52,017 nucleotides of DNA from Chloroflexota bacterium. GTDB taxonomy: Bacteria > Chloroflexota > Anaerolineae > J102. The DNA lies in assembly GCA_013152585.1 (NCBI GenBank), contig JAADGC010000153.1:1-52017 (forward strand). The letters run 5' to 3'. How positions within the stretch are numbered: the first letter of the stretch is position 1; each line of letters begins with the position of its first letter. This document shows positions 1,883 to 31,891 of this stretch, one piece after another. The position numbers and the translations under genes were made by a program. The notes below the pieces were generated by a model. That model searched no databases. It was not told where the DNA came from and saw only the letters and a list, made by a program, of their open reading frames with translations.

Positions 1883-2007
1883 GGGGCAATACACACCACA
1901 GCGATGTTTGTGGAGTATACACCGCGCCACGACCTGCCGTCAACGAGCGTTAAGGGAACGGGGTATCAATAATCTCCGTTCTCCGTCAGGCAATCGCAGG
2001 CAGACCG

Positions 2008-5000
2008 CTACCGCTTGATCACCACGCCCGGCCAGAAGAGCCGATACATCTCCCGCACTTCGGCCTGCACCGGGCCGTAGAGGCGTCCGTCCGAGACGGT
2101 CTCAATCAGATACCAGTAAGTATCCGGACTGAGGAATGAATCTTTCCAGCGATAGTTGGCGCCGTCAGGGTCGGGGGCGGGGATGCGCTGACTGACCGGC
2201 TGGAAGGGGCCGGATGCCTGCAGGGCCCGCCAGACGACGAAGCCATCGGTTTCGCCGCCGGCTGTCGTCGCCCATTGCACCACCACGTTTTTCTCTTGCG
2301 GGGTGGCCGTGAGCTGGCCGGGTTCAGAACTGGGGGGGGGCGTTGCGCTGGTGGGCCGGGTCGGGCCACCGGGATCGACGATACGACCGTTGGCCAGTAA
2401 GTCGCCATCTCCCCGGCCGCCATCGGTCAGGTGCAGGAGGATGGTGTCGCCCCGAAATTCGGCGCCTGTATGGGTATCAAAGGCGAAGTGATACCAGTGT
2501 GGGTCGGGATTGCCGGGCTCGGCTCCGTATTTGAAGTAGTCGTGCATGACCGGGCCGGTGGGGGGCAGGATGAGCTTGATGGTCAGGCTTTGGCCGGGAG
2601 TGAGGCCCTCCAGGGCAAAGGAGAACACCCCCTGCGGGAAATCGATGGGCACGGGCAGGCTTTGGGGCAAGGGGGCGGCCAGGGCACGGGCGTTTTCGAT
2701 GCTGGTGCCGGGGGGTGAAACCACGGTAATGTAGCTGCCATCTACGGCATTGGGCATGGAGGTGACGTTTGCCTGGTCGGCATCGGGGATGCCATCGTGG
2801 TTGCCGTCGCCATTGCCGGGGGCATTGTTTTCGATGTCGCTGCTGATGCCGTCGGCGTCGTCATCCGGGCCGGTGACGAGCAGGGGCCAGCTTTGGATAG
2901 TGGCGCTGGGTTCGTGGCCGCCGGTGGTGGCAAGATAGACGGCTTCCAGAACGAGACCGGCGTCCTGCCCCGCAGGGCCAAGTTGGGTGCGCTGGCCGGA
3001 AAGGGCGAGGGCGGTGAAGGTGAACGTTGCCACCTGTGTTTCTTCGGAGATGCCGGTCGCTGACAGGATGTTGAATTTGATTTGGTCGGGGGCGAAGGTG
3101 GGATTGCAAAAACCGGCGAAGGTTTCATTCCCGGCGCCAATCTGGCAGTTTTGCAGTTGTAAAACGGCGGGATTGTAGTGCAGCAGGAAGGTGGCAGCCG
3201 CCAGGGCCATGCCGGGGCCGGGGGCCACGATCAGCGGTAGGGTGAGACTGTTGCCGGGGGTGATGTAGCCGGGGCCTTCACCCAGGCGTAAGATCAGCTC
3301 GTTGCCGGTGGCCGCGGGAGGCACGATATCGATGCCACCGTCGGCGGTCTGCACGGGCAGAGGATGGCCGCTGGGGTCGGCGAAGGTGGTGGGGCTAAGT
3401 TGGATGTCGCTGGTGTCACCGGGGGTGGCGCTGCTTGCAGCCTGCCAACGGACGGTCGCCAGGGTGAGGTCGCCGTTGACACCGCCAAGTGACACGGCAT
3501 TCAGGCGGATTTCGCCGGGGCCTGCCTGCAAGTTGCAGATACCGGAGCCAAAGGCGCTGTTCTGACTGCAGGCAAGCGGCTGCACGACTTGGGGCTGATA
3601 ATGCAATACGATGCTGATCGCTCCCAGGTTGGTAGCGCCTTCGATGCGAATGGCCGTCTCGATTTGGGCGGAAGCCGGCAGATCGTACTGGCCGCCGTTA
3701 GCGGCGTCGCCCAGCCGCAACAGGGCCACGCCGGGCCCGCTGCCGCTGTCGATGGTGACGCTGCCGGGATGGGTGCGTACGGGCAGGGGGATGGCGGCGG
3801 TGTCGTCAAAGCTGCGCACGGTCAGGGTCAGGGGCGTGCTATCTCCCACAGTAGCCGCGACCGCCGGCGTGAGCAACAGGTCGAACAGGGGCAGGTCACC
3901 GCTGATCCCTTGCGTTGAGATCAGGCTGACGCGCACGTGGTCGCCGTGCAGAGCGCACACACCCCAATCGAGTCGGGCGTCCTGGCGCACCCGGCAGCCG
4001 ACGGCCCTCACGATGGCGGGGTCGTAGCTGAGGTTGAGCGCGGCTGCACCCAGATCGCTCACCTGGCTCATCCACACGGGCACGGTGGTGGTGATGCCCA
4101 TAGACGTGCTGAAAGCGCCGTCGCCCTGGGGCGGGCCCACCCAAAGGTGCGGCGTCTGACCGGTGGGCTGGCCCAGGGTGATGCTACCGGCGGCGGGCAG
4201 GAGATAGAGCGGCTCGCCGCCGGCACCGGTGGCGTGATCGATGACCGGCTCTAACTCGCTGAGGGCGCCGGGGCTGGCGTCGGGGGCGGCCTGGAAGCGG
4301 ATGTCGAAGGCGGGGACGATGCCGTGCAGACCTGACGCCGACACCAGGTTGAGCTTTATCCAGCCCTGATCCGGATCGAAGTTGGGGTTGCAGGTGCCCA
4401 TCAGGGGCGAGGCAATGCGGCACTGACGGGGATGAAGCACGGCGGGGTCGTAGTGCAGGAGCAGGTCGAGGGCGCTGAGCGTGTGAGCGCCCGTAATCGC
4501 CAGGGTGACGGATAGGGCGAGGGTCTCTCCCGGCCGCAGCACATACGGTCCATGGCCGCTCTCTCCGATGCTCACCCTGCCATCTTCTCCGGCAACACCC
4601 CCCACTACATCCACCTGGCTGCCGGCGGTGTCGACGGGCAGGGCTTGGCCTTGGGGCGTGGCGAGCTGGGCGCTGGTGGGCGCGACGTTGCTGTGGCTGC
4701 CCACGGGGCCGTACACCTGCCACGTGATCTGGTAGAGGGGCTGCTCGCCGTTGACACCGGCAGCGGCGAGGGCATTGAATTTGACGGCGTTGGCGGCAAA
4801 GTGCAGGTTGCAATAGCCGCTGCCAAAGGCACTGCCGGGGGCTTTTTCGCAGGCGACCGCGCGCAGCACGGCCGGATCGAACTGGATCACGGCTGATGCC
4901 GTCCCCACGTTGGCGGCGTCGCTGAGCGTGACCGGCAGGGTGATGAGATCGCCCGACCTGAGGGTGTAGGGGACGCTGCGGCCATCGCCCACGCGCAGCA

Positions 5001-5148
5001 CGGCCGCTCCGGCCAGCGGCGCCGCCACACCGGGTTGCAACCCGCTGCTGAACATGAGCAGCAACAGGGCGGTGGTCAGTCCGGCCCAGAAGAGGCGCCG
5101 GAAGGGGTGGGCGGATGTTGAAGGCGCCGCAAGTGGATCAGGCCTCAT
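2008..5148 (-). CDS. Secreted protein with five cohesin-like modules, a choice-of-anchor U-like domain and an FN3-like domain
   Basis: Predicted exported scaffold-like protein of 1046 aa. A signal sequence covers about residues 15-45 (hydrophobic LTTALLLLMF). Five cohesin-like beta-sandwich modules of about 135 aa follow at roughly 49-182, 190-325, 336-467, 474-609 and 617-757. Each has the pattern F/YDPAVL, a Cys, 9-12 residues, then CysAsn (Ala in module 3), then K/R-F/L-N and a Gly-hydrophobic turn. Cys pairs are 100/113, 243/253, 385/398, 527/538 and 668/681. Residues 761-792 are Asp-rich TSP3-like calcium loops (DDDADGISSD), followed by a choice-of-anchor U-like domain (793-925), a Pro-rich linker, an FN3-like domain (943-1035) and the tail RLFWPGVVIKR. 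It is the last gene of the operon, 78 bp after the dockerin gene. No Shine-Dalgarno is obvious before the ATG. Family membership comes from motif reading; binding partners are inferred. Confidence 0.85.
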   Translation of the reverse strand: MRPDPLAAPSTSAHPFRRLFWAGLTTALLLLMFSSGLQPGVAAPLAGAAVLRVGDGRSVPYTLRSGDLITLPVTLSDAANVGTASAVIQFDPAVLRAVACEKAPGSAFGSGYCNLHFAANAVKFNALAAAGVNGEQPLYQITWQVYGPVGSHSNVAPTSAQLATPQGQALPVDTAGSQVDVVGGVAGEDGRVSIGESGHGPYVLRPGETLALSVTLAITGAHTLSALDLLLHYDPAVLHPRQCRIASPLMGTCNPNFDPDQGWIKLNLVSASGLHGIVPAFDIRFQAAPDASPGALSELEPVIDHATGAGGEPLYLLPAAGSITLGQPTGQTPHLWVGPPQGDGAFSTSMGITTTVPVWMSQVSDLGAAALNLSYDPAIVRAVGCRVRQDARLDWGVCALHGDHVRVSLISTQGISGDLPLFDLLLTPAVAATVGDSTPLTLTVRSFDDTAAIPLPVRTHPGSVTIDSGSGPGVALLRLGDAANGGQYDLPASAQIETAIRIEGATNLGAISIVLHYQPQVVQPLACSQNSAFGSGICNLQAGPGEIRLNAVSLGGVNGDLTLATVRWQAASSATPGDTSDIQLSPTTFADPSGHPLPVQTADGGIDIVPPAATGNELILRLGEGPGYITPGNSLTLPLIVAPGPGMALAAATFLLHYNPAVLQLQNCQIGAGNETFAGFCNPTFAPDQIKFNILSATGISEETQVATFTFTALALSGQRTQLGPAGQDAGLVLEAVYLATTGGHEPSATIQSWPLLVTGPDDDADGISSDIENNAPGNGDGNHDGIPDADQANVTSMPNAVDGSYITVVSPPGTSIENARALAAPLPQSLPVPIDFPQGVFSFALEGLTPGQSLTIKLILPPTGPVMHDYFKYGAEPGNPDPHWYHFAFDTHTGAEFRGDTILLHLTDGGRGDGDLLANGRIVDPGGPTRPTSATPPPSSEPGQLTATPQEKNVVVQWATTAGGETDGFVVWRALQASGPFQPVSQRIPAPDPDGANYRWKDSFLSPDTYWYLIETVSDGRLYGPVQAEVREMYRLFWPGVVIKR

Positions 5149-5226
5149 ATGTTTTCGTAGGGGCAGGTGTTGTTTGTTGGCAACATGGATTCTGAAAGCT
5201 CCCTCACTAATGTCGTGGCCCGCGAT

Positions 5227-6591
5227 TTAGCGCCGTAATTCGGGCAGGTAAAGGCGCGGGACCAGATCGGGGGCGGGGGTTTGTGCTGCGGTGGGGGCGA
5301 CGTCAGCGGCGGCGATAACCTGGGCATGGAAGAGCAGGGGCAGATACAGCCGCTGGCTCTCTTCGGGGATGGGGATGTCACTGGGGGCAGGCGCGCTTTG
5401 CTGCGATGCCTGGAAGCTCCAGAGCAGGGGCAGGTACAGCGGGTTGCTGTCGCCGGGGATGGGAATCAGCTCGGGGGCAGCCAGTTGCCAGGGAAGTCCG
5501 GCGCCCTGGTGGTCGGAGGTGTCGACGATGGCCAGCGAGAGGTTTTGTAACCGGGAATCGTCGCCGAGGGGGTGGTTCATGTGGAAGCTCACGGTTGCCA
5601 GTTCGGTTCCGTCGGAGAGGCCGGTGGTGCTAAGTGCGTTGAAACGCACGACTCCCGGCGCATAGTCCGCATTACAACTGGCCATGTCCAGCGCATCCGC
5701 ACTGGTTTCCTGGCAATCGACGGGCGTAAGCTGTTGCAGGTCGTATACCAGCTCCAGGGTACCGGCGCCGAAAGCTGCCTGTGGATCATCAGCCAGCACC
5801 CGCACGATCACCTGTTCTGTGGCTGCGTCGGCTTCGATCTGCAGGTGCAAGAGCAGCAGCGCCTCGTTGGGCGTGTTTTGCTCCTGGATGGCCGCGGCCG
5901 TGGGATGGTTGGGACACTCGACGCCGCTCATGCCCACATCGCATTGCAGGATGCGCAGGGCGTCGCTGGCGTTGCAGACGCCATCTTCGATGATGTCGCA
6001 CAAGGGCAGGTAGATGGTGCGGGGGCCGGGCGGGAAGCTGGTGACGCCTTCGATCAGGCCCACGTCGTACTTGAGCACCAGGAGGGCATCGCCGGAGTCG
6101 CGGCGACCGCTGGCGTTGACATCGCCCAGGGAATAGGCATCAGGGCCGGAAAGGAAGAGATCGAGGTGATAGGCGCCACCATTGCCGTCGCCGGGCACCA
6201 TGAAGCTGTTGAGCACGACGCCGTTGGCATCGGTAAACATGGCCGGGGCATCGTTGATCTGGAAGGTGATGTTTTCGCCCAGGCGGACGCTACCAGCGTC
6301 GTAGGCGGTGTCGCCGACGTCGTACTGGCGCAGGGGGATGCTGAGCACGTAGCCGTAGTCGGTGCCACTCACGGGGGCGATGACGGCGGTGACCACGCCC
6401 CCGCGCGGCAGCAGGGCTTTGACAGTGCCATCGCTAAGCGGCTGGCCGTCTCGCAGCACCGTGCCGTAGAGGATGAGGTCGGGCAGGGGCAGGGGCGTGT
6501 CGGGGGGGGCCTGCGCCAGCGCCTGCAGCGGGGCCACCAGTACCAGAAGACCGGTGAGAAGGATCAGCCTGAGGGATAGCCTGGGCTTCAT
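5227..6591 (-). CDS. Secreted dockerin-like plus cohesin-like protein with repeated LYLPLL motifs
   Basis: Exported 454-aa protein. I chose the ATG at 6591, which overlaps the stop of the giant gene by four bases (ATGA) and starts a clear signal peptide (LRLILLTGLLVLVAPLQALA). Residues 38-150 form a beta-rich domain. A dockerin-like double motif follows: GDVNASGRRDSGDALLVLKY at 156-175 and DIIEDGVCNASDALRIL at 199-215, the Asp/Asn-rich calcium loop plus helix pattern of type I dockerins; the second loop is less canonical. A cohesin-like module with Cys293/Cys306 spans 244-372. The C-terminus holds an imperfect tandem repeat of about 30 aa, each copy with I-P-I-P then LYLPLL (385-390 and 415-420), and ends in RLYLPELRR. 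Having both dockerin and cohesin-like modules makes an adaptor role plausible (inference). Translational coupling to the giant gene suggests matched synthesis. Confidence 0.85.
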   Translation of the reverse strand: MKPRLSLRLILLTGLLVLVAPLQALAQAPPDTPLPLPDLILYGTVLRDGQPLSDGTVKALLPRGGVVTAVIAPVSGTDYGYVLSIPLRQYDVGDTAYDAGSVRLGENITFQINDAPAMFTDANGVVLNSFMVPGDGNGGAYHLDLFLSGPDAYSLGDVNASGRRDSGDALLVLKYDVGLIEGVTSFPPGPRTIYLPLCDIIEDGVCNASDALRILQCDVGMSGVECPNHPTAAAIQEQNTPNEALLLLHLQIEADAATEQVIVRVLADDPQAAFGAGTLELVYDLQQLTPVDCQETSADALDMASCNADYAPGVVRFNALSTTGLSDGTELATVSFHMNHPLGDDSRLQNLSLAIVDTSDHQGAGLPWQLAAPELIPIPGDSNPLYLPLLWSFQASQQSAPAPSDIPIPEESQRLYLPLLFHAQVIAAADVAPTAAQTPAPDLVPRLYLPELRR

Positions 6592-9500
6592 GGTGCACTC
6601 TCCTCTGTGGATTGCGCCGCCGCAGTTCCGGCGTATGCGTAGGTCTGGAAGTAGATGTAGATGTCGGATACGTCCTCGATAAAGCGTTCGATGCCGATCT
6701 GGGGGTCGGAGAGCAGGGTGGCGCCGGGGATGACCAGCAGCCATTCCGTGTTCCATACCGTGCGCCCGATCAGGCGGGTGTCGGTGTTCAGCTCGTCGGG
6801 CGAGAAGGTATCGGAGTAGGGATAAGCCCGGAAGCGGGTGTAGGGTTTAATTTTGTACATTTCGCCGCTAAGACCGCCCAGACGTGGTGTCCAGTTCGGG
6901 TTCTCCATATCGGCCTGGGTGATGGGATAGGGCACGGGCAGCAGTTGTTCGGTGACGTTCCAGTAGCGCAGGAGGCCGCTGGTATTGCGCGGTCGGCCCA
7001 CATCCTTGCCGGCGGGGAGCAGGTAGACGCGCGGGGTTTGGGCCAAGCGACTGGTATCATAGCCCTGGAACCACACACCCACATTGGCGATCTTGGTGGA
7101 GAACTGGCTGGCGTCGTAGGCGCTGTCGCCAGGCCCGAGCGGGCGAGCGAAGAAGTTTTCGCCCTCAGTGATGGTGGAGGCGATAGGAATGACCAACCCA
7201 GGTTGCGGGCCGTTATCGCCATAGGGCCGCTTGGCTAGGCGGGCGACGTCGTCATTGCTGTAGATATCGGGCGTGTAGTAGCGCATCAGCTCCTGCCGCC
7301 ACTTGGCGTCGGAGTCGTCTCGCAAACGGAAGAGCTCCCGGCGCAATGAGAAGCGGTTGGCCTCGGCTTGCGGGTTGTTGAAGCCCATCTGGCCCTTGAG
7401 TATCTTGAAATTCTCGTTCATCTGCGCCAGGGGTTCGGCCAGACCGCCGGAACCAACGACCGGTTCGAGCGGCAGGGGGCGGAGCCGTCTCAGTTCGCCC
7501 AACGAGCGCAGGCCTATGATCTGGCGCAGGAATTTGTCGCCGTTGGCGGGATCGTCGCCAGAGAGGTTGGTTTCGTAGTCGTAGGCGGCGGCGGTGAGAT
7601 AGGTGTAGGTCTGGGCCATGTCGAATTGCCGGCGGTATTTCTGCAGGGCGTCATTTTGGAAGATGCGGTAGGCCATGTCGTTGTAGCGCTGCTCGGTGAT
7701 CTGCCCGGCCCAGCGTTTGCGCAGGCGGCTCAATTCATTCAGCTTGCGGAAGCCGCGCTGCAGGGTCTGATCATAGTTGCCCTGGGCCGAATTCACACGG
7801 TCCTTGGCCAGGTACACCGCCAGACGCAGTTCCCGTTCCTCCCGTAACAGACCGCCCATTGCCTTGCCGTACTGGGCGAGATCATAATTCGACGAGACTT
7901 CCAGGATGGCCGTTTCGATCCCGGCTTTCGCCGTGTCTTTTACGGCTCCCAGGACATCGACGCCTATGTCCAGGCCAAACACCACATTTGAAGCAATCGT
8001 ACTCAAGGCCGATCCGGACACAGAAAGGGCGCAAACAACGGGAGCGCCAACGTCGTTGGCCAGACCGGCGCTGCGCGGCGGGCATTCAGCCGCGGCATCG
8101 GTAATCGTTTTCGCCGTTTTGCCAAATTGGTTGATGGTTTTCGATATACCCTTGATCACACGGACGGTTTGATCGATGAGATAAACCGCCCATCTTTCGC
8201 TGTGCTTGAGACCACGCATGGCGGCGAGATACTGAGCCTTCTCCTTGATCTTCTTTTGCATACCGTCTATCTTTTCGACCTGGTTCTGGTAGGCCTGAAT
8301 CGCCATCTCGTATTCCACCCGCGCCTCGGTCAATTCTTGGAGGGTGTTCTGGATTTCGCCTGGCGCTTTGCGGGCGCTGTCTTCCGGCCAGGACGCCGGT
8401 TTGAAACGCCCCCGCCCCGCATCCAGACCAATGCCCACCCGGTACTCGATTTCCACTTTATCGCTGTCGCCCTTCTTGAGATTCACGTCGGAGCAGAGGT
8501 CTCCCCAGGTAATGGTGTCGATATAACGCTTGGGGAAATTCCCCAGACATTTGATCGTATTATACTCGAGCGTGAAGGTCGTCGTCTCGACGACACAGTG
8601 GCCGGCGTCCCTGTCCGCATCGCTGCACCGTTTCTGGGCATCGGTGAGTTCATTGCGATCCCAGAGATCGTAGTTGTAGATGTCGGGGCCGTCGTAGCCT
8701 GCCGGATAGGTGCCGTTGACACCGATGTCGGCGTCGTAGGGATAACCGAAGAGCTCGATCAGCTCGTTCATCAGCGCCGTATCTTTTTCGACGATGCTGG
8801 TGACGAAATCGCGGCGGGTGTTTTGCGATTGGCGCTGAGCGATCTTCATCTCGTTGGCATAGTCGAACAAATTGAAGGCGCTACCCAGGTTGACGAGCGT
8901 TCGGTCATAAACCTGCTCGAAGTGGGTCTTACCTCCACCCTCGGCCGTGGTCTTGGTCTTTGCCGGATCCAGATCGAAGAGCACGGCGTTACCCACCAGT
9001 CCTAGCGGGTTCAGGCCGCCGTCGGCCTCGTCCAACTGCTGTTGGATGGCGGCGTACTTGTCGGCGATCTCGCCCAGTTCGGCCACGGTGGTGCGGTCGA
9101 TCTTACGCACATCGCTGTAGCGATTGTCCACGGGCGGTAGGATGGCATTGGCCACGACCCAATCGAGATACGCGCCCTGCCCGGCGCGGCGCGCCCAATC
9201 GGCCACGCCCCAGGCCCGGCGCTGTCCGTCCGAGGTGTCGATGTGGCTGTCCACGTATTCTTGGCTGTGCGGATCCGAGTATTCCTTGCGGTAGGTCAGG
9301 TCCACGATTTCGGCCCCCATCCGCGCCTTGGCGGCAGCAGCAATGGCAAAACGGCGCTCGTCGTAGTAGTCCACCACCACCGGCGCCCCGGCCACGAGGA
9401 TAGGCTCGGCCCGGGGTGACCAGGTGTAGTAAGGATGGCGTAGCAATTGGTAATATTTGCTGATCGCCGTCAGCATCTGGCCCCAGGCGTCGCCGTGCCC

Positions 9501-15500: not shown

Positions 15501-18500
15501 CACGGTTAGGGTTTGGGGGCCGTATTCGATGGCGCCGATGTCACAGCGGGCGCCACCGCCACCGGGCATGTCGAAGGGGCGCAGCTTGCCCCGCTGGTCC
15601 GTTTCCACCGCACAGTCAGCCTCCGGGGGGCCGCTCTCGACGGCGGGGCTGGTTGCCGCCAGATCAAGCGTGAGTGTGGGGCCGCCGTTATCTCGCAAGG
15701 GCCCAAGCTGGGGATCACCAGTGCTATCGTGCCCGGCCAGGGTTACGAAGCAATTGCCGCCATTGGTCAGATTGTAGTCCAGCGAGGTCACGGCATCGCC
15801 CGTACACTGGCTGGCTGCCTCCTGGCTGCTGAGGATGCTTGCGCCTACACGCACCGATCCGCCACCGACGTTTAAGTCGTGCAGTGAGCCGCCTTCGTTA
15901 TCGGCCAACGTCGCCTCGGTCACCGTCGCCGTGCCGCCGGGGGCATTGAAAATGCCGCCACCACTTTGGGCCGTATTGCTGTAGATCGTGCTGTTGATGA
16001 CGTTGAGCGAACCGCTGTTGTAAACGGCGCCGCCATCATTCGCCTCGCTGTGATAGATGGTCACGCCCTGCAACGTCAGATCGCCGGCATTGTTGATGCC
16101 GCCGCCCTGATCGGCGTCGCCGTGGCGGATGTTCAAGTTCTTGATGGTGACGATTGCCCCCACGGTGATAGAAAATACGCTGCCCGGCGCCTGATCGCCG
16201 TTCGCTTCGGCCAGCGTCGCCTGCACCACACCCATGTGCGTGCCTGGTGTCGCTTCCACGAGCAACGGCCCGCGAATGGTGACGCTCTTGGACACGGTCA
16301 CGGTTTCGGTGACAACGCCGGAGACGACGATGGTGTCGCCGGTTTGGGCGTCCTGCAGGGCGGTGCTGATGGCGTCATAAGTGCAGCGATCCAGATGTTG
16401 GGCGATGGGCAGCAAGGGCGGGCCACAGACCAATAAAGTGGCTGCGCCTAACTCGACCGCCCCGGCGTCGCACTTCCACTCGCTCTTGTCGATGATCACA
16501 CCTTCCTGACGGATGCCCCAGGCCGGGCGGGTTTTGCCCCGCTGGTCCTGCTTGTGTACACCCAAATTCTGCAAGTCGCTTTCACAGACTCCCCGGGGTA
16601 TGATATCCACCAGCGAGGTGTTCGCTTTGCCCGCGGGTTTGTGCGTCAGCGTGGGGCCATCATTGTCGGCCAGGGGCTCCAGGGCAATCGTGGCGTTTTC
16701 CTGGTCGTCGGCAGTGGCATTTTGCAACTGGCAGGAACTGTCGCTGATACGATTGTAGCCCCCCACAGATGTGAGCGAGTCGCCGCTGCAGTTGGCGGTC
16801 ACCGTTCCCTGGGGGTTAGCAACGATGGTTGCGAACAAATTGATAGTACCACCGCGATTCCAGATATTGGCCCCCGCCACTGAAGCACTATTTTGGGCAA
16901 GCGTGGAAAAGTGCAGGTCTGCTGATGCGTTATCTATGACAATACCCCCGCCTCTGTTCGCCTCGTTGCCTGAAATTGTGCTATTGATGATGGTGATCGG
17001 GCCGTTTTTGCCGTAAAGCCCGCCGCCATACCTGGAAGCGCTGTTCTTAGAGAGGGTGCTATTTATCATTCTGAGACTGGCATGAGTATTGTAGATGCCA
17101 CCACCCTCACGCAGAGAGATGTTTTGGCTTACGGTGACGCCATCAAGCGTTAGATTTCCCAGATAGTTGATGATGCCACCACCAGCGGTACCCGCGGCGC
17201 TGGCGCCACCGGTGAGGGTCACGCCTCGTATGAGGACGGTGTAAGCCCCTTTGACGCGGATCACGCGATCGATTCCTCGGGCATCGATCACCGTCGTATT
17301 GGCGCCGGCGCCGATAAGGGAGAGGTTACTGACAATATCGAGGTCGCCTGCGGTGTTGGAATAGTCCGGTGGATAGACCTGCACTTCGGCCAGCGACAGA
17401 GGCTCTGTGCCCGTGAGTTGCACGCGCACGTAGCGTCCCCAAAGCGCGCCCGGGGTGCCTGCTGAGGGTGTGAAGTTAGCTGTCGTCAAAGAGAAAGTAG
17501 TTCCGGCCGCTCCACTGTGGTAAGCGCTCCACACCCCGGGTTGATTTTTGGTTGCATCGGGGTCATCGGAGGTAAAGGCAGTGGCCGAGACAAAGACGTA
17601 GAAATTGCTCAGGCGCGTGCTACAACAATCGCTGCGGTTCCATAGCTTGATCTCGTTGATCCCTCGCCCCTCGCCCAAGTCCACCTGCCACCAGGCATAG
17701 TGCTCAGAATTTGTGTGCGTCACCGAACCATGGATCCAATTGCCGTTGCTGTCGCCATCCACGGCCCGGCTGGCGCTACCCCCGGCATACGTGCTGGATT
17801 GGGAGGCCGGCTTGTTCAGCGCCATATTCCCAGCGACATTAGCGATATCAAGGTTGTAGGCGCCGGCGGGCACGGTGATGGTGTAATAGCCGCTGTTGCC
17901 CAGATTACAGCCGCCAAAGGGGGAGTTCGTGTTGACGGATTGCACCGCCTCACGCAGGGAGCAGGTGGCATCGTTGGTATTAAACTCATCGAGCTCGGTA
18001 TTGACGGTGAGCACGGGAACGAATCCCGCTTCGTAGGCGCCGATGTCGCACTTGGCCGTGCCGTCATTGTCACCATCCTGCGGGCGCTCGACCCCGCGTT
18101 GGTCGCTGGCGAGGCCGGGGCAACTGCCAGCATCGATAGCCGGGCTGCCGGGCAGCAGGGCATGGGTTTGAGTAGGTCCACCGTTGTCTTTGAGGCTGCC
18201 CAGCTTGGGATCCGTATTCACTAGATCGCTGGCCTGGTTGAAGCCACAGTCATTGCGGTTTTCCAGGTTGTGGCCCTCGGAATTAATAGTTGGCCCCCAG
18301 TTTGCACAGTTGGGATACCGTGTAGCCAGATTGTTGGCAATAATGGTATTGCTGACCGTTAGCCCATCCGCCGCTTCCCCATTGAGTAATCCACCAACCT
18401 CTACAGTGGCTCGATTGTCGATCACAGTGCTGCTGCGCAGCGTAAGCGCCCCCCCGTTCTCGATGCCACCGCCGTTGTTAGCAGAGTTGCCACTTACAGT

Positions 18501-19889
18501 GCTGTTACTCAGCGTAAGTGTTCCCCGATTATCGATGCCGCCGCCGAAGTGCTCTGAGTTGTTGCTGTAGATGGTACTATCGCTGACAGTCATCGTGCCA
18601 TTTCTGTTGTTGATGCCGCCACCCTCGGTATAACCGCTCCCTATGCTGCTGCCGCCACTACCGCCGGGGCCACGACTGCCGAATTGACCGCCGCTGCCGC
18701 CGTGGGCTGTACAACCGTCTACATATGTTGTACCTGAGGAACCCCACGAACCGTAGCCACCTCTGGGGCCCTTAGAACCTGTGGCACCGCCTGCGCCACT
18801 GCTAACCCTGTTGTAGCTGACGGTACTGTTGCTTAACGTCACAGCGCCGACGTTATAGAGTCCCCCGCCCCGGCCTATCCCGCCGTAGCCCCCATATCCC
18901 CCCGGTCCACCTTGGCCGCCTGCACCTGCTGCGCCACCATCGCCGCCATCTCCGCAGGCGGCCCCGAAAAACCACAGGTAGGCGCCATTACCGCCATTGC
19001 CACCCCGGCCGCCATTGCCACCCCGGCCGCCATTGCCGCCCCGGCCACCAACGCCACCCATGGTGCTGTTATTTGTTATACTGCTGCTGCGCACGGTTAA
19101 CGTGCCGGCGTTGTAAATGCCGCCGCCCAGCCCTTGGCCACCTGCTCCCCCACTACTGCCAACGTTACCAGTGCTGCCATTACTGCCATTACTGCCATCG
19201 TGACCGTCCGAGCATGAGCTGAAGCCACAACTGCCATTACTACCATTGCCGCCATCGTTCCCCTTGCCACCGGTGCCACCCGTGCCGCCAGTGCTGCCCT
19301 GACCGCCGACGGCTGTGCTGCTGCTTACCGTCGAGTTGAGTAGCGTCAGGTTGCCTGCGTTGTAAATGCCCCCGCCTCGGCCAGCACTGCCGTTGGCTCC
19401 CACCACCCGCCCGTTTTGAATGATCAAATACTCCAGCACCACCGTGTGTCCGGCCGGGATATTCACCACGCGGTCGTTGTTGCTGCCATCGAGAATCGTG
19501 TCGCCACTCTCACTGCCGCGTAATGTCAGGTTTTTGGCGATGGTGAGATGTTCGGCATAGGTGCCGGCGGCAATGTAAATCGTGTCGCCGTTGCTGGCCT
19601 TGCCCATAGCCGCGGCGATAGTGCGACAAGGCGCGGCGGCGCTCTGGCAGCTATTGCCATCGTTGCCGGTGGTGGCCACAAACCAGGCGGTGGCGCTGGG
19701 CAGAGAATTGCGGTGGGCAAGCTCCGGCATCAGCAAAGCGTTGCCGGGCGCGGTGAAGCTCGCCATGCTTGCTGGCGCCACAGCGGGCGTCTGGCTCATG
19801 GCCCCCACCCGATTGCCTGCTCCCAGCAGGGCGATCATCAGCGCCAATCCTATGAAAACCATCAACCGCAGGATATGTCGTGTCTTCAT
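6588..19889 (-). CDS. Giant secreted beta-helix/CSLREA protein with nested discoidin, cupredoxin-like and PKD-in-cohesin domains
   Basis: A 4433-aa exported protein. The start used (19889) gives a clean signal peptide (MKTRHILRLMVFIGLALMIA) with AAGGA upstream; an ATG at 19949 overlaps the upstream stop (ATGA) and would add 20 residues. Rough layout: a parallel beta-helix with long Gly-rich loops (60-600), choice-of-anchor Q unit 1 (to about 620), a CSLREA motif near 643 with an F5/8C discoidin domain inserted (687-844), further beta-helix and choice-of-anchor Q units (850-1990) holding two cupredoxin-like insertions (1692-1790 and 1904-1991), and a cohesin-like domain (about 2470-2680) with a PKD domain (WDFGDGTS) nested in it. 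The remaining about 1750 residues are unrecognised apart from an EF-hand/dockerin-like loop (DINQDGFVDEADA, about 3441) and a coiled coil (3843-3890). No protease, glycosidase or LPxTG is seen. It is probably a stalk or adhesin at the cell surface (inference). Confidence 0.88.
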   Translation of the reverse strand: MKTRHILRLMVFIGLALMIALLGAGNRVGAMSQTPAVAPASMASFTAPGNALLMPELAHRNSLPSATAWFVATTGNDGNSCQSAAAPCRTIAAAMGKASNGDTIYIAAGTYAEHLTIAKNLTLRGSESGDTILDGSNNDRVVNIPAGHTVVLEYLIIQNGRVVGANGSAGRGGGIYNAGNLTLLNSTVSSSTAVGGQGSTGGTGGTGGKGNDGGNGSNGSCGFSSCSDGHDGSNGSNGSTGNVGSSGGAGGQGLGGGIYNAGTLTVRSSSITNNSTMGGVGGRGGNGGRGGNGGRGGNGGNGAYLWFFGAACGDGGDGGAAGAGGQGGPGGYGGYGGIGRGGGLYNVGAVTLSNSTVSYNRVSSGAGGATGSKGPRGGYGSWGSSGTTYVDGCTAHGGSGGQFGSRGPGGSGGSSIGSGYTEGGGINNRNGTMTVSDSTIYSNNSEHFGGGIDNRGTLTLSNSTVSGNSANNGGGIENGGALTLRSSTVIDNRATVEVGGLLNGEAADGLTVSNTIIANNLATRYPNCANWGPTINSEGHNLENRNDCGFNQASDLVNTDPKLGSLKDNGGPTQTHALLPGSPAIDAGSCPGLASDQRGVERPQDGDNDGTAKCDIGAYEAGFVPVLTVNTELDEFNTNDATCSLREAVQSVNTNSPFGGCNLGNSGYYTITVPAGAYNLDIANVAGNMALNKPASQSSTYAGGSASRAVDGDSNGNWIHGSVTHTNSEHYAWWQVDLGEGRGINEIKLWNRSDCCSTRLSNFYVFVSATAFTSDDPDATKNQPGVWSAYHSGAAGTTFSLTTANFTPSAGTPGALWGRYVRVQLTGTEPLSLAEVQVYPPDYSNTAGDLDIVSNLSLIGAGANTTVIDARGIDRVIRVKGAYTVLIRGVTLTGGASAAGTAGGGIINYLGNLTLDGVTVSQNISLREGGGIYNTHASLRMINSTLSKNSASRYGGGLYGKNGPITIINSTISGNEANRGGGIVIDNASADLHFSTLAQNSASVAGANIWNRGGTINLFATIVANPQGTVTANCSGDSLTSVGGYNRISDSSCQLQNATADDQENATIALEPLADNDGPTLTHKPAGKANTSLVDIIPRGVCESDLQNLGVHKQDQRGKTRPAWGIRQEGVIIDKSEWKCDAGAVELGAATLLVCGPPLLPIAQHLDRCTYDAISTALQDAQTGDTIVVSGVVTETVTVSKSVTIRGPLLVEATPGTHMGVVQATLAEANGDQAPGSVFSITVGAIVTIKNLNIRHGDADQGGGINNAGDLTLQGVTIYHSEANDGGAVYNSGSLNVINSTIYSNTAQSGGGIFNAPGGTATVTEATLADNEGGSLHDLNVGGGSVRVGASILSSQEAASQCTGDAVTSLDYNLTNGGNCFVTLAGHDSTGDPQLGPLRDNGGPTLTLDLAATSPAVESGPPEADCAVETDQRGKLRPFDMPGGGGARCDIGAIEYGPQTLTVCENCDEDPDNGRFNDLQKALNTAMAGDIVAIEAGAYTGNFIVYKDATLQHAGIDVTTLSPDQPVDVRAILQASERTIPEQHRLLDPARASGLSGTVLTVQAYYPITATGTIAVTGDVSVTIENLTIQHGLSRQGGGISNRGRLTVVRSTLSENAAVNQLDEGGAVVSGQEARGGAIYNAGQLTLQRSTLSGNQAEFYGGGIYNAALPTSPIAATALLQASTIAENQAARLADQYVVAIDTGPVFVPTALTVTSGDIVQFQNRTGDAYRLLVEPASACNTDAVKVDPLGMGLSAPLICSTGLVTLRSDQINDLTIVLTVNPLPFTPQAHAVYAGENSATTIAHSIIVKSVGSAGDDCVLASATAHISSGQYNLVDDASCGLTDDTDLRPAIMPELDARLGPLQDNNAIDFAQNTVSGFTYSHALKPGSSAMDRIPPETCEAATTHTIFLVGGANPEVTIAAGDIVIFAYQAHVTVAFDDGEANVEMIDVPAGGRSLPRQFSEDGSYAYRVYDNAGRAQIAYGRITVQARPRTVDQRGVLLPQRGTGGEYACDMGSYEFQPWIVGQPVLHPPSAIITQPARWNVGGAESGPDVQSYHAWSAAASQDYALRPSPNDGDDTLEPEELVTVSWDTDPDPATLVEIGQVGVIEWPDAPQIHVSGAGVALMHQEISDGFQIAGARAFEGLNPADAEAGQLLVNGVFRRATLPDAGDSYSVLQWIKGNQTNATLKVEVVKTVDWNTPGVRDMRAERTQCEIGRELRYRPFGDAAGELPGHEDPEGKAGQILTGEAFDGVHETAELALAQNTVDNLIPPAYNQETREGPIIPVLNTAPTPFLNTDAVTGDHDLRIAWYRPDGRNVAWPVKTVGYRCDWPADPPEIVIASELGSEIANQAVLETDAFRDLTIYHQPDTSLPGYSPNWEHALLAASNLGNPAPALYALRIDLQDRDPSEPGGQSYALLKYHDPLEDGLTKIGIYKVMLTRPANPIPNFTSDSGIVTLNAAAITAQAAASPPNVILRVDDGNLTPGGEVTLPLEALGARNLHSLSLKVTYDASKLTPTNCTTNRLKFVEQLYGLQVTSDSPQWPFHVVHLRASLAAGTDAQYFWDFGDGTSRVAGAEVSHVYGANGDYTVTVTAANGVFADLTATTPVSIDDAASPGTLTDLPTSGCRIEQAGQLSIELQARAKHGLSGDLRLSDLTFAATPAFNIDGDTTEVGFSNIALFGPSYEDLSYNIDAGNPVYAPTPLRGLLDIQPCEQTRAADVTARPFWKDWKGMLWARAAGDMQVLYFYPLQPGFYLTDAHARNLGLVDTNDNVLSIDDRVGRCVPWMDQLSNGAVPYADFPEEGSNTQVLPVAYHADWPDLPPLLSVGETVYERAKSGISGVANQLAVSRIYDDWAPGAWDSSTQRIIMQGPEVQQSLAQLIDPIGEVRVHLDLKINDNWSLPTDLKSERLLFGGGQAIVGNKNDPDLALPFSLRSRVLFDDGAGDLIFRGYYDGTSKEYIKGDPLLLLNVMSTSDKERLWALCPGGTDCDKYKAAVQALYWQTLNPRQLDLCRNAAGELYAGDPEPAANQGPADPSDPQICNHAAATYRDGQPDQAFLIGVQDVNNDGVSEPYEGLGKGKALTAGNAAGAGYITVAYNNDSSLGGLPVSLQVIKVGCTKNHLGEDSTYRGNLLVIKSDNLFDEKLTLRHTGDFGGRPDDFEFQWYIAAVDDTGVSPTAIPPNYPWRSWTKVEPGASAIGPEITIEGANPTTLSDNWLIMRYKGYPICGNQYRWSAFAGDPSAKPSEVRAQFAPGWIKRVTSALNPFDARVDDFISAPVNTTVDMIRQAGHRYEGPVALSNDPETLNNMGLIEAYETILDRGRKLSIDSGVNDQGANAALLNVTSRIADLYMLLGNDAYMDARDPTVGLDSNSGFASRAPAIFAFMNQFRPDSFGLIDEELALLRGRDETLGGVAAAPTYNRLTWNFTNGDGEIAYVTNYNIKDINQDGFVDEADAAILYPQGHGDAWGQMLTAISKYYQLLRHPYYTWSPRAEPILVAGAPVVVDYYDERRFAIAAAAKARMGAEIVDLTYRKEYSDPHSQEYVDSHIDTSDGQRRAWGVADWARRAGQGAYLDWVVANAILPPVDNRYSDVRKIDRTTVAELGEIADKYAAIQQQLDEADGGLNPLGLVGNAVLFDLDPAKTKTTAEGGGKTHFEQVYDRTLVNLGSAFNLFDYANEMKIAQRQSQNTRRDFVTSIVEKDTALMNELIELFGYPYDADIGVNGTYPAGYDGPDIYNYDLWDRNELTDAQKRCSDADRDAGHCVVETTTFTLEYNTIKCLGNFPKRYIDTITWGDLCSDVNLKKGDSDKVEIEYRVGIGLDAGRGRFKPASWPEDSARKAPGEIQNTLQELTEARVEYEMAIQAYQNQVEKIDGMQKKIKEKAQYLAAMRGLKHSERWAVYLIDQTVRVIKGISKTINQFGKTAKTITDAAAECPPRSAGLANDVGAPVVCALSVSGSALSTIASNVVFGLDIGVDVLGAVKDTAKAGIETAILEVSSNYDLAQYGKAMGGLLREERELRLAVYLAKDRVNSAQGNYDQTLQRGFRKLNELSRLRKRWAGQITEQRYNDMAYRIFQNDALQKYRRQFDMAQTYTYLTAAAYDYETNLSGDDPANGDKFLRQIIGLRSLGELRRLRPLPLEPVVGSGGLAEPLAQMNENFKILKGQMGFNNPQAEANRFSLRRELFRLRDDSDAKWRQELMRYYTPDIYSNDDVARLAKRPYGDNGPQPGLVIPIASTITEGENFFARPLGPGDSAYDASQFSTKIANVGVWFQGYDTSRLAQTPRVYLLPAGKDVGRPRNTSGLLRYWNVTEQLLPVPYPITQADMENPNWTPRLGGLSGEMYKIKPYTRFRAYPYSDTFSPDELNTDTRLIGRTVWNTEWLLVIPGATLLSDPQIGIERFIEDVSDIYIYFQTYAYAGTAAAQSTEESAP
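18991..19044. repeat. 18-bp tandem repeat, three copies, in the giant gene
   Basis: Copies of CCGCCATTGCCACCCCGG sit at 18991-19008, 19009-19026 (identical) and 19027-19044 (one change). On the coding strand each encodes the hexapeptide unit of a GGRGGN-type glycine-rich loop inside the first beta-helix. The repeat length keeps frame, so copy-number change would lengthen or shorten the loop without breaking the protein. Confidence 0.9.
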
Positions 19890-19945
19890 CTTATTATTCC
19901 TTGCCCTCACAGCGTGATATCGATCAGGGGTGTGCAAATGTCTCA

Positions 19946-22633
19946 TCATCCACCTCCTCCCCCAGTTTGATCATAGCCCTGGGGCGTCAGATCCTCCCAG
20001 GCGAGCAAATGGTGGATGACGAAATAGCCCTTTACGGTAATGTCATTCTTATGAATGCCGCTGATCACTTCTTTGTACAGCCCCCCCCACACGCCACCGC
20101 CCCAATCCAGATTGGCGGCAATGGTGGCAGTGGCGCCAGCTACCGGCGGCAACTCGGTCAATTCCAGTTGCATCCGTCGCCGTACTTCGTAGGATTCCCA
20201 CAGATAGGGCGCCACGGTGTTGAAGTCGATGGGATTGAATTTGACATCCAGGTTATCGTGATCCGGGTTGTATTTGTGTTTATAGGGATTGAGCGGATCG
20301 TCGGGGCCAATCAGGATCGAAAAATCGAGCAGGCCGGAGGTGTCGCCGAAATCGGCGCCGGTCGCCACGACCGGTTCTATCATGCTAAAATTCACGGAAC
20401 TGACGCGCTTGCCTTCAGCGCTGAGATAGTCTGGCAGCAGCTCTACGCCGCCGTTCTCATTCACGCGCAACAGCACCCGGAAGCGGAACTCGCTGCCGTC
20501 GCCGTTGGCGAAGCGCGTGGGCGCTCCCACTACAATCTCGCCGCAGGCAATACCCTGGCCCACAGCGCCATTGGCGCCATGTTTTTCGATGTATAGTACA
20601 TACGACGGAGAACCAAGCAGCAGATCGTCGACGACGTAGCCGGGGTTGAGAGCGGCGCTGTTGATGGTGGTAAGCAGCACGCCATTCACCATGGGCGCCA
20701 GGTCTTTGCGTTTTTCCCGGAGATCGCTGCACTGCCCGGTCCACAAAGAGACATCGTAAATAGGCACCACGCCGAAGTTCAGCAGAGGCTCGACGCGATT
20801 GTCGTCGGCATCGTATTGGGGCAGGGTGAAGGGGGGAAACAGCACTTGCTGACGGTAAGCGGCAGGCTCCAGGGCGCTAATACCGGCGGCGTTCACGGTC
20901 ACAAAGGTGGGCAGGGCATTGCTGGTGATGGTGGTCGTTTGCGGCAGCATCACCGCGAAATCGCTGGTATAGCCCGCCGGTGCCGCGGCGGTAATGGCAA
21001 GCTGTCCCGCAGACAGGCCTGCGAATACGAAGAGGCCATCCTCGGCCGTTTGCCTGCTCATGCCGCCGAGCGTCACCGTCACCCCCGCCAGTCCGCTCTC
21101 GTCTGCATCCCGCTGGCCGTTCTGGTTGCTATCTGCGAAGACATAACCGGCCACGTAGGGGGTCGTGGCGCTGATGGCCTGTAGGGGCAGGATTTCTTCC
21201 GGCACCGGCAGAGAGAGGGTGGCCGTCAGGGCCACCGAGGCCGTGTTGCCGGCCGGTATCTCGTGCAACTGGGCGGAGCCTTGCTGGCCGGAAAGATCAC
21301 GGGGGCGCAGGGCGATGGTGAGTTCGCCATTCTCCACGTTGGTGCCGCCCAGCCGGCCTTCGCTGACATCATTGACGACCACCTCGCCGATCCAGAGACC
21401 GGCGAAGTCGCCTCGCAGCGCCGTGACCGGCACCAGCCAGCGCGTGCCCAGATCGGGAGAGCGAATTTCCAACAGGGCGGCGCCATCAGCCGCCTGATCG
21501 ACAGCGGGCACGACGAAATGGATAGCGGCGGCTTGCCCTGCCGCCAGGGAACGGGAGGCCGGGTTGGGCCACAGTGTCTGCAAGGGATCCGTATCGGATT
21601 CGGGATCACTGTCGTATTGCAGAGCCACGGCGGGTGCGCTCTGGCTCAACACTTGCAACTGCACCGTGATGTTGCTGTTTGCTAGATTCTCGATGCGCAG
21701 CGTTTGCTTGCTGCCGTCGAAGCCGGGCGTGAAGTCGAGGCCCTCGCCGATCGTGCTGATGATATCGAACGGTGCCGTGTAGTTGAGCACATCGTCGCTG
21801 CGGTAGTACACCAGATAGGCCTCGCCGTAGGCGAGCTCGGCATCGGAGGCCATGGCGTCGCTCCATTTACCATCAGCTTGCAGCGCCCGTACTTCGGTCA
21901 CCGGGGAAGGGCCGCCGACGAGGTTTTGGAAAAACGTCGCCACGGTAGGGGACGGGGAGGCGTCGGGGTCGATGGGGAACCCGGCGAGGTTGTAGGAATC
22001 GGGCAGCCACTGATGGTGGGCGACCACGGGCTGGCCGCGTACATCCAGCGTCGCCGGTCCGGCCCCGTCCTTGAGCTTGACCAGATAGCCGCTGTTGGCG
22101 TGCAGGCTGAACAGGTCGCTGAGAAAGGCGCGTGATTCGCCGTCCGGCCCCAGGCTGCCGGCCGGGTAATAGCGATTCCAGCCGGGTGCATCCCACAAGC
22201 CCTCTGCCGGATCGACGATGTAGTCCATGGTGGTGAGGGGGATGTTCCAGGTCCATACGCTTTCCAGGCAATCGCCGCAGGAGAGGCCGGCAAAGACGGC
22301 CTCGATGGTCGATAGTTCGGGCGCCATGATCGGCTGATCGACCGTGCCCACGTTGACCAACGGTGAATCGTTGATCGGGTCCACCTCGAGGTAGATGCTG
22401 TTCCAGCCCGGGTGCAGGTCAAACGTTTGGGTGAGGATGGCCCCATCCACCTGGGTGGTGGCCATCGCCTGGGCGCGGCGCCTCGTCATTTGGGGAGCGG
22501 GGGCGCCTGCCGCCTGACTGGCGGGCCGGGCTTCTGCAATGGCGCTGTGTCCCACCGAGGCTCTAAACCCCACCACGATCATGGCGGCGATGACAAGTAT
22601 CAGCCCAAAGCGAGTGATTGTCTGCTTGGACAT
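19946..22633 (-). CDS. Secreted protein with SdrD-type B repeat, function unknown
   Basis: Exported 895-aa protein with an N-terminal signal segment (FGLILVIAAMIVVGF). AAGGAG lies about 10 bases before the ATG, inside the end of the upstream gene, which it follows by 4 bp. The N-terminal part begins with HPGWNSIYLEVDP, a beta-rich start seen in other large secreted proteins, with a CGDC pair shortly after. One SdrD B-like repeat (about residues 492-549) carries the calcium-loop motif FADSNQNGQRDADESG and the following G-V-T-V-T-L. The C-terminal 250 residues (PIYDVSLWTGQCSDLREK onward) are unrecognised and end in a poly-Gly tail QTGGGGG. It has no cohesin-like module, unlike the other four operon proteins. 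The stop overlaps an ATG of the giant gene by four bases. Likely an extracellular structural or binding protein; no catalytic motif was recognised. Confidence 0.85.
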   Translation of the reverse strand: MSKQTITRFGLILVIAAMIVVGFRASVGHSAIAEARPASQAAGAPAPQMTRRRAQAMATTQVDGAILTQTFDLHPGWNSIYLEVDPINDSPLVNVGTVDQPIMAPELSTIEAVFAGLSCGDCLESVWTWNIPLTTMDYIVDPAEGLWDAPGWNRYYPAGSLGPDGESRAFLSDLFSLHANSGYLVKLKDGAGPATLDVRGQPVVAHHQWLPDSYNLAGFPIDPDASPSPTVATFFQNLVGGPSPVTEVRALQADGKWSDAMASDAELAYGEAYLVYYRSDDVLNYTAPFDIISTIGEGLDFTPGFDGSKQTLRIENLANSNITVQLQVLSQSAPAVALQYDSDPESDTDPLQTLWPNPASRSLAAGQAAAIHFVVPAVDQAADGAALLEIRSPDLGTRWLVPVTALRGDFAGLWIGEVVVNDVSEGRLGGTNVENGELTIALRPRDLSGQQGSAQLHEIPAGNTASVALTATLSLPVPEEILPLQAISATTPYVAGYVFADSNQNGQRDADESGLAGVTVTLGGMSRQTAEDGLFVFAGLSAGQLAITAAAPAGYTSDFAVMLPQTTTITSNALPTFVTVNAAGISALEPAAYRQQVLFPPFTLPQYDADDNRVEPLLNFGVVPIYDVSLWTGQCSDLREKRKDLAPMVNGVLLTTINSAALNPGYVVDDLLLGSPSYVLYIEKHGANGAVGQGIACGEIVVGAPTRFANGDGSEFRFRVLLRVNENGGVELLPDYLSAEGKRVSSVNFSMIEPVVATGADFGDTSGLLDFSILIGPDDPLNPYKHKYNPDHDNLDVKFNPIDFNTVAPYLWESYEVRRRMQLELTELPPVAGATATIAANLDWGGGVWGGLYKEVISGIHKNDITVKGYFVIHHLLAWEDLTPQGYDQTGGGGG

Positions 22634-22637
22634 AAGG

Positions 22638-23618
22638 TTAGTTCTCCTTCATCAGAAGAGATGCAAACGAGAAGGAATGTTCGCTATTTGAGGTAACTTC
22701 GGCTTGCGTACAAATGACAATGGATTTACAGGCCAGCAACCACCGCCCCTGCCACATGGCTTCGATGTAGACGGTGGCGCCTGTGGGTGCTTCGGCCAGG
22801 GCGGAGAAGGCTGTTTCTTTCACCAGGTTTTCCTGGATTTGACCGTTGATGCGTATGCGCCAGTCACTAACGGTTTTGTCGCTGGTGACGCTCTGTCGCC
22901 GCAGGTCGGGGGCGCTGCCCGCCCTGCACCAGCCACCACACTGAAATGCCGGCGGTGGACCGCCTGTGGCGAAGGTCATCAACGGCAGGTGGATGGTCTG
23001 GCCTGCTGAAGCTGGCGGCGTGGGTGTGGGGGTCGGTGTGAGTACGGGGACCAGGGTGATGACGCCATTTTGGGCTGTGACGTCCAGGGGCAGGGCATCG
23101 ACATTGGTGAAGGTTTCTACCTGCACCTCGATCATGCTTTCGTTTCCCGACCCGGGCATACTCCCCCCCTGCCAACTAATCTCTACCAACACCAGGGGGC
23201 TGGATGCGGGGACATCGACACCATCGAGCGACACGACATTGAAGCGCACGGCATCAGGCACGCCATTCCCATCCCGATCCAGGTCCAGGTTGCACAGGCC
23301 CACTTCGAAAACGGGATTGCGCTGGCATGAGGTGGGATGGAGCACATCGGGATCATAATCCAGGGTGATCGTGGCGGCGCCGAGCTGTTGTACCCCGCTG
23401 ACTTCGACCGGCAGCGAGGTGGCATTCCCCGGGATAGTCACAACGCCATCGCGCGCCCGCACCAGGGCCGGGCCGACGTCTGGGGCCATGAGACCTGAGA
23501 CGATATGCCCGGGTCCATGTCCGCTGGCGGGTGATGGCACAAAAAAAACCAGGATTGCGATGATGAACAGCGCACCCAGGACGATTCCTGATGATGTCGT
23601 GAAGTGATGGTGCCTCAT
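22638..23618 (-). CDS. Secreted single cohesin-like module protein, first large gene of the operon
   Basis: Exported 326-aa protein. A long hydrophobic N-terminal segment (GIVLGALFIIAILVFFV, residues 11-27) is a signal peptide or anchor. One cohesin-like module spans about 57-190 with Cys98/Cys109 followed by Asn, and an Asp-rich loop (DLDRDGNGVPD) between the second Cys and the RFN signature. A PTPTPTP linker leads to an IHLPLM motif (209-214), comparable to the LYLPLL motifs of the 454-aa protein. The C-terminal 100 residues contain a Cys pair (CGGWC) and an unrecognised beta-rich domain. It opens the tightly packed secreted-protein run, 4 bp before the 895-aa gene. No clear Shine-Dalgarno precedes the ATG. 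The presence of the same module as the five-cohesin protein suggests a shared partner, which is inference. Confidence 0.85.
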   Translation of the reverse strand: MRHHHFTTSSGIVLGALFIIAILVFFVPSPASGHGPGHIVSGLMAPDVGPALVRARDGVVTIPGNATSLPVEVSGVQQLGAATITLDYDPDVLHPTSCQRNPVFEVGLCNLDLDRDGNGVPDAVRFNVVSLDGVDVPASSPLVLVEISWQGGSMPGSGNESMIEVQVETFTNVDALPLDVTAQNGVITLVPVLTPTPTPTPPASAGQTIHLPLMTFATGGPPPAFQCGGWCRAGSAPDLRRQSVTSDKTVSDWRIRINGQIQENLVKETAFSALAEAPTGATVYIEAMWQGRWLLACKSIVICTQAEVTSNSEHSFSFASLLMKEN

Positions 23619-24084: not shown

Positions 24085-24137
24085 GGTAAAGCAGAGTAAT
24101 GTTTCATTCTATCGTGTGCTCAAGTCGAGGCGTAACG

Positions 24138-29719: not shown

Positions 29720-29816
29720 TTTCACGGGTGCCCTCCTGCTTGCGAAGTGGGGGAAAAACAAGACAGCTTGATCTGTGAATTCCGGCGAATTCCCTGAGAT
29801 CTACACTTAGACATAG

Positions 29817-31852: not shown

Positions 31853-31865
31853 GGAGCGTTCTTTC

Positions 31866-31891
31866 GGCGTCTGGTGCTGGAACCGGACGCC
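31866..31891 (+). terminator. Intercistronic hairpin between the two ligase genes
   Basis: GGCGTCTGG (31866-31874) pairs with CCGGACGCC (31883-31891) with one G-T pair and an 8-base loop; the following bases are AAATTTCCTCTTATTT rather than a clean T-run. It could be an attenuator or an mRNA-stabilising element. Confidence 0.4.

What the first reader, a model, noticed from the sequence alone, without database searches (positions are those of the whole stretch)
2008..23618. Operon of five secreted proteins with eight cohesin-like modules and a dockerin but no hydrolase
Seen: a minus-strand run with 4-bp gaps or ATGA overlaps at three of four junctions; signal peptides on all five; cohesin-like modules in four (1, 1, 1 and 5 copies) and a dockerin-like double motif in the 454-aa protein. 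Known: cohesin-dockerin pairs assemble cellulosomes. Inference: this is a non-cellulosomal, probably cell-surface assembly in which the dockerin protein links to the five-cohesin protein and the beta-helix giant acts as stalk or adhesin. No glycoside hydrolase or sortase motif occurs.
Basis: partly seen in the sequence, partly recalled or inferred. Interest (0 to 1): 0.85.

Follow-up and report, generated by a model that had tools for sequence, protein, structure and literature searches.

The report
Five-gene non-cellulosomal cohesin–dockerin surface assembly
A little-studied Chloroflexota bacterium carries a conserved gene set that uses the plug-and-socket parts of cellulose-degrading machines (dockerins and cohesins) with no digestive enzyme attached, probably to hold a giant adhesin-like protein in an extracellular complex.

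Summary
Five minus-strand genes (window 2008-23618) encode secreted proteins with 1+1+1+5 cohesin modules and one dockerin. No hydrolase family was detected. Cohesin identity rests on Pfam, on a profile matching solved cohesins, and on a fold match of the most divergent intact module (Z about 11). The dockerin alone scores below Pfam's cut-off, but a 14-sequence profile matches solved dockerins.

The gene order recurs in other Chloroflexota MAGs: giant, dockerin part and five-cohesin protein wherever contigs allow, all five genes in one. In three genomes the giant and the dockerin protein are a single reading frame, so the dockerin is effectively the giant's C-terminal tail. Every orthologue of the scaffold protein whose cohesin array is complete has exactly five cohesins. 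They are 19-37% alike among themselves but 53-66% identical by position between two genomes.

Cellulosome membership is rejected: none of the three dockerin loci detected in the genome belongs to a hydrolase. Which cohesin the dockerin binds is untested. The adhesin role is inferred. I rate it a new variant of non-cellulosomal cohesin–dockerin systems.

The parts
22638..23618 (-). p326: secreted protein with one cohesin module (residues about 60-190)
   Evidence: Pfam Cohesin 7e-4; profile from p1046 modules 1.6e-23; orthologue at the same position in G418, 41% identity
19946..22633 (-). p895: secreted protein with an SdrD_B-like domain (residues 496-557), otherwise no known family, Gly5 C-terminus
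   Evidence: Pfam SdrD_B 2.1e-10; orthologues 45-50% identical in G418 and G419
6588..19949 (-). giant, 4453 aa: signal peptide, Gly-rich repeats with choice-of-anchor Q stretches (suggesting beta-helix), F5/8C (715-809), cohesin split by a PKD (about 2495-2720), highly conserved C-terminal region 3000-4453 of unknown fold with an EF-hand-like loop near 3465
   Evidence: conserved C-terminal region 62-78% identical in three orthologues
5227..6591 (-). p454: signal peptide, Ig/CarboxypepD_reg-looking domain (about 34-147), Cys-rich dockerin (156-232), cohesin (about 244-385), Pro-rich tail with three LYLP motifs
5896..6126 (-). dockerin of p454, two Ca-loop/helix repeats, with four Cys that are invariant in the family
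2008..5148 (-). p1046: scaffoldin-like protein, five cohesins (49-182, 190-325, 335-466, 475-609, 618-758), choice-of-anchor U domain (835-929), Fn3-looking C-terminus ending YRLFWPGVVIKR
   Evidence: five cohesins in every orthologue with a complete array
24099..25727 (+). divergent BTAD/SARP-type regulator with NACHT/AAA domain; possible regulator of the operon
   Evidence: Pfam BTAD 5.7e-21; a homologue (31.5% over 257 aa) sits divergently at the same place in G418

Best explanation
The five genes make one non-cellulosomal, extracellular cohesin–dockerin assembly. p1046 is a scaffold with five different cohesin sockets and p326 is a single-socket partner. The giant is the functional cargo: Gly-rich repeats that look like a beta-helix, an F5/8C carbohydrate-binding-like domain and a highly conserved C-terminal region. 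The dockerin is the giant's plug, either fused to its C-terminus or carried on the separate adaptor p454, and it docks Ca-dependently into cohesins of the operon, so that giants are held in a multivalent surface or matrix complex that most likely serves adhesion. Shown: the modules, the operon layout, conservation of order, the giant–dockerin fusions, five conserved cohesin positions, no hydrolase domain. Inferred: trans docking, surface location, adhesive role.
For: Cohesin and dockerin identity. Gene order giant / dockerin protein / multi-cohesin protein in G002, G443 (= G419) and G719, with all five genes in G418. Giant and dockerin protein in one ORF in G002, G443 and G576, split in the window, G418 and G719. 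Exactly five cohesins in p1046 of the window, G002, G443 and G418. Cohesins kept distinct by position: 53-66% identity between window and G002 at the same position, 19-37% within the protein, position-wise clades for the window/G002 pair. Among the 20 genomes of the family, proteins with three or more cohesins occur only in the two that have the giant. A second locus of the same genome (C85) repeats the theme: a long protein ending in a dockerin followed by a two-cohesin protein.
Against: No binding was tested or modelled; AlphaFold-Multimer is not on offer and the dockerin itself was not resolved (pLDDT about 33). In the family most dockerins lie next to a cohesin in the same chain, which suits cis or self-docking. 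No cell-wall anchor was identified in any of the five, although the genome has one sortase. One Ca ligand position of the second dockerin loop (I instead of N/D) is non-canonical in the window.
Confidence: 0.55

Rival explanations
1. Cis or self-docking: the dockerin binds a cohesin of its own chain or of an identical chain, so that p454 (or the giant-p454 fusion) folds back on itself or polymerises head to tail. The p1046 cohesins then bind something else or are mere spacers.
For: 21 of 29 dockerin hits in the family lie within 200 bp of a cohesin in the same reading frame, 11 with a cohesin on both sides. In p454 the cohesin follows the dockerin directly and this order is kept in all orthologues where it is readable.
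Against: It does not explain why a five-cohesin protein is always encoded next door when the contig allows a look, nor why such proteins are confined to genomes with the giant. The p454 cohesins form a clade of their own, apart from the cohesins of coh-doc-coh proteins, so shared specificity is not implied.
Confidence: 0.25
2. The modules are structural: cohesin-like jelly rolls used as stalk spacers and the dockerin as a Ca-stabilised end cap, with no cohesin-dockerin recognition.
For: Modules within p1046 are divergent (19-37% identity) and have a conserved Cys pair suited to rigid stalks. Clostridial cellulosomal cohesins usually lack such a pair (own knowledge).
Against: Joint presence of both partner modules in one operon in several genomes; both calcium loops and the helix positions of the dockerin are strongly conserved across families; sequence and fold match true cohesins that bind dockerins.
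Confidence: 0.12
3. A true cellulosome or other enzyme scaffold whose dockerin-bearing enzymes are encoded elsewhere in the genome.
For: A five-cohesin scaffold would suit recruitment of several dockerin proteins; three dockerin loci exist in the genome.
Against: The three are this p454, a coh-doc-coh protein on C215 and a long protein of Ig/cadherin-like repeats ending in a dockerin on C85; none is a hydrolase. No CBM3 or GH model in the operon.
Confidence: 0.03
4. The giant is a secreted effector or antagonism factor, with the cohesin proteins as its delivery or display platform.
For: Size, fast-changing N-terminal part and strongly conserved helical C-terminal region; patchy distribution (6 of 396 genomes of the class).
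Against: No catalytic or toxin domain in Pfam or NCBIfam; no solved structure matches the C-terminal profile; structure prediction failed (pLDDT 31).
Confidence: 0.05

Closest known systems
Non-cellulosomal cohesin–dockerin proteins of Archaeoglobus fulgidus
   Same: Cohesin and dockerin proteins without cellulosome; the solved A. fulgidus cohesin 2xdh is among the best profile matches (1.1e-6) and a fold match (Z 10.3). Its Coh-Doc pair binds with high affinity (PMC9705933).
   Different: Archaeal carriers of these modules were described as lacking multi-cohesin scaffoldins (review cited in PMC9012536); here there is a five-cohesin scaffold, a 4453-aa partner and a five-gene operon.
Scaffoldin-like cohesin/dockerin proteins of ANME archaea
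   Different: There the dockerin and the cohesin array share a chain and partners are e.g. ABC-transporter binding proteins. Here the array and the dockerin are on separate proteins and the partner is a giant adhesin-like protein.
Clostridial cellulosome scaffoldins and adaptor scaffoldins
   Same: Several cohesins on one chain; adaptor scaffoldins carry both dockerin and cohesins (PMC4959524), as p454 does. Fold and sequence of modules related.
   Different: No hydrolase, no CBM3; cohesins much more divergent among themselves; conserved Cys in both partners; different phylum.
Coh-doc-coh proteins of the same Chloroflexota family (e.g. G000 C215)
   Same: Same Cys-rich dockerin type and cohesins of the same profile.
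   Different: Cohesin on both sides of the dockerin, no giant and no five-cohesin partner; two additional Cys in the dockerin.

Membership tests
Cohesin modules (PF00963) | sequence match above Pfam gathering score | tested here: met
   p1046 90.2 bits against 24.1. p326 (20.2) and p454 (13.0) are below it on their own; the giant's split module is not matched.
Cohesin modules (PF00963) | jelly-roll cohesin fold | tested here: met
   p454 module, moderate-confidence model (pLDDT about 50-75): the top 33 rows by Z are all cohesins, best Z 11.2. Folds of the other modules were not predicted.
Dockerin type I (PF00404) | two Ca-loop/helix repeats, match to dockerin models | tested here: met
   Pfam 19.0 bits against a cut-off of 22.9 alone, 23.9 over the whole frame; family profile matches solved dockerins, best 2.4e-4; loop positions D1, N3, D/N9, D12 in loop 1 and D1, D/N5, D12 in loop 2 kept across operon orthologues.
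Cohesin–dockerin binding pair | specific high-affinity binding of the dockerin to a cohesin of the set | not testable with these tools
   no complex prediction or binding data available
Cellulosome | dockerin-bearing glycoside hydrolases assembled on a scaffoldin | tested here: not met
   No hydrolase in the operon; the three dockerin loci of the genome are non-enzymatic.
Cellulosome | cellulose-binding CBM3 on the scaffoldin | tested here: not met
   no CBM model in p1046
Sortase- or SLH-anchored surface protein | LPxTG-TM-positive tail, or SLH domains | tested here: not met
   No SLH model; no C-terminal transmembrane segment with sorting motif. The genome does have one sortase.

The most novel reading that the evidence does not exclude
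A previously undescribed class of bacterial surface machine: a giant adhesin-like protein with a detachable dockerin (fused in some lineages, carried by an adaptor in others) displayed on a scaffold with five positionally fixed, mutually different cohesins, using a Cys-rich dockerin subtype found in Chloroflexota. Five-fold different sockets would imply ordered rather than random assembly.
Probability: 0.3. Interest if true: 0.75.

Novelty: new variant of a known kind. Interest (0 to 1): 0.55.

Why it matters
What non-cellulosomal cohesins and dockerins do has been open since they were found in archaea and other bacteria. Here both partner modules, a five-socket scaffold and an obvious candidate cargo are encoded together, conserved in order across several families, and naturally fused in some genomes. 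That makes the question testable with eight cohesins and one dockerin. It would also add a disulfide-type cohesin–dockerin pair for protein engineering.

Tried and rejected
Cellulosome: rejected. Chance similarity of the modules: rejected (shuffled controls and leave-out profile; fold). AlphaFold2 on the giant's last 1200 residues with three orthologues failed (pLDDT 31); only long helices are suggested and I drew nothing else from it. AlphaFold2 on p454 left the dockerin unresolved. The layout of the giant's C-terminus (long helices followed by a last conserved domain) reminded me of the C-terminal part of Tc-toxin A subunits. This is from memory only: Pfam gave no such match and the profile matched no Tc structure in the PDB at E up to 10, so I do not claim it, and I did not fetch a Tc toxin as a yardstick. 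Searches of plasmids and viral contigs for the giant found nothing. A C-terminal [LIVF][YFHW]LP tail as a general sorting signal: 3 of 249 proxy genes against about 0.9 expected, too weak to claim. The 2009 review of non-cellulosomal modules (PMC3035643) is not held.

Full report
What is there. The window is contig C202 of a 3.8-Mb, 96%-complete assembly. Its nearest named relatives are Chloroflexota MAGs (Caldilineaceae bacterium ACE_CHL9 and an uncultured Anaerolineae bacterium). Five minus-strand genes run p326, p895, giant, p454, p1046 with a 4-bp gap, two ATGA overlaps and a 78-bp gap. Each protein starts with a hydrophobic signal-like segment. Downstream lies an unrelated type-I-restriction-like HsdR reading frame (identified by eye); upstream, divergently, a BTAD/SARP-type regulator that has a homologue in the same place in G418.

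Modules. Pfam calls p1046 a cohesin protein at 1.8e-25 but scores p326 and p454 below its cut-off and misses the giant's module. A leave-out profile made from p1046 alone finds p326 (1.6e-23) and p454 (7.8e-15), and the giant's module as two weak halves with a whole-protein E of 2.8e-4; 400 shuffled sequences gave none. The eight modules align with two invariant cysteines and their joint profile matches solved cohesins, including the non-cellulosomal one of Archaeoglobus. The most divergent intact module (p454) was folded; its best 33 structural neighbours are all cohesins, Z up to 11.2. In the giant the cohesin is opened between its two cysteines by a PKD domain, and this is so in all four orthologues compared.

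Dockerin. The p454 dockerin is at 0.0016 in Pfam. Aligned with 13 relatives from other loci it shows two loop-helix repeats with G-D-V-N, P-P and four cysteines invariant. This profile matches solved dockerins (best 2.4e-4). The type occurs in 24 of 392 genomes of the class, 11 of them in the family of the window. In the operon orthologues the dockerin is visibly the best conserved part of p454.

Conservation. The C-terminal region of the giant is found in 2 of 20 genomes of the family and in 6 of 396 genomes of the class, and in no other of 400 sampled across the phylum. So the cassette is rare and patchy. Where contigs allow, order is kept: giant, dockerin part, five-cohesin protein in G002, G443 (= G419) and G719; all five genes in G418. 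In G002, G443 and G576 the giant and the dockerin protein form one open reading frame with the internal signal peptide lost; in the window, G418 and G719 they are separate. This natural fusion is the best evidence that the two work together and that the dockerin is the giant's plug. p1046 has exactly five cohesins in the window, G002, G443 and G418 (the G719 copy is cut by the contig end). They are 19-37% identical to each other but 53-66% to the module at the same position in G002, and window and G002 modules pair by position in the tree. In more distant genomes the positional pairing is less clear.

What it is not. No hydrolase model matches any of the five proteins. The genome's three dockerin loci are p454, a coh-doc-coh protein (C215) and a long repeat protein ending in a dockerin (C85), the last followed by a two-cohesin protein. 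A cellulosome is therefore excluded as far as these tools reach.

Mechanism. I think p1046 is a scaffold with five distinct sockets, p326 a single-socket partner, and the giant the cargo. The giant's N-terminal 1000 or so residues are the less conserved part (30-51% identity to G418) and its C-terminal region the most conserved (up to 78%), as expected of a variable binding end on a constant base; this is inference. F5/8C and PKD domains fit an adhesive or matrix role; inference. Calcium dependence follows from the dockerin family; inference here.

Main doubt. In this family 21 of 29 dockerin hits lie within 200 bp of a cohesin in the same frame, and 11 have one on both sides. A dockerin that always travels beside a cohesin may dock in cis or build chains of itself. 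p454 has the same dockerin-then-cohesin order. Only binding experiments can decide.

Comparison with the literature. Non-cellulosomal cohesins and dockerins are known, an archaeal pair binds tightly (PMC9705933), and ANME archaea have proteins with a dockerin and up to five cohesins of unknown role (PMC9012536). Adaptor scaffoldins with both modules exist in cellulosomes (PMC4959524). Among the twelve papers in the library that mention cohesin, dockerin and Chloroflexi together, titles and abstracts show none describing such an operon; I did not read them in full, and subscription papers are not held. Hence: new variant of a known kind.

Noticed in passing
window 5227-5400 and 2008-2050; L019 C-terminus; L022; L027 p326 C-terminus: Many of the cohesin/dockerin proteins end in, or contain near the end, a short motif of the type LYLPLV/LYLPELRR; p454 has three. 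It may be a tail signal of this lineage, but the genome sample gives only 3 of 249 genes.
   Followed up: partly
window, giant residue about 3465 (near 9540): The most conserved stretch of the giant contains one EF-hand-like loop, DxNxDGFxxExD, kept in all four orthologues.
   Followed up: partly
L020 (G000 C85) 6805-12567: Long protein of Ig/cadherin-like repeats ending in a dockerin, followed directly by a protein with two cohesins of another type: a second candidate pair in the same genome.
   Followed up: partly
L019 (G000 C215) 1780-5100: Coh-doc-coh protein; equivalents in about ten genomes of the family, a recurrent cis arrangement.
   Followed up: partly
L062 and L063 (G719 C699, C258): One genome has two copies of the giant's C-terminal region; the C699 copy carries an in-frame TAG call.
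   Followed up: no
window 30281-47389, + strand: Run of acyl-CoA dehydrogenases, AMP-binding ligases, thiolases and related enzymes, apparently a fatty or aromatic acid degradation cluster unrelated to the finding.
   Followed up: no
window 27908-29761, - strand: Secreted protein with two CBM_4_9-like and two LysM domains, a possible cell-wall binding protein near the operon.
   Followed up: no
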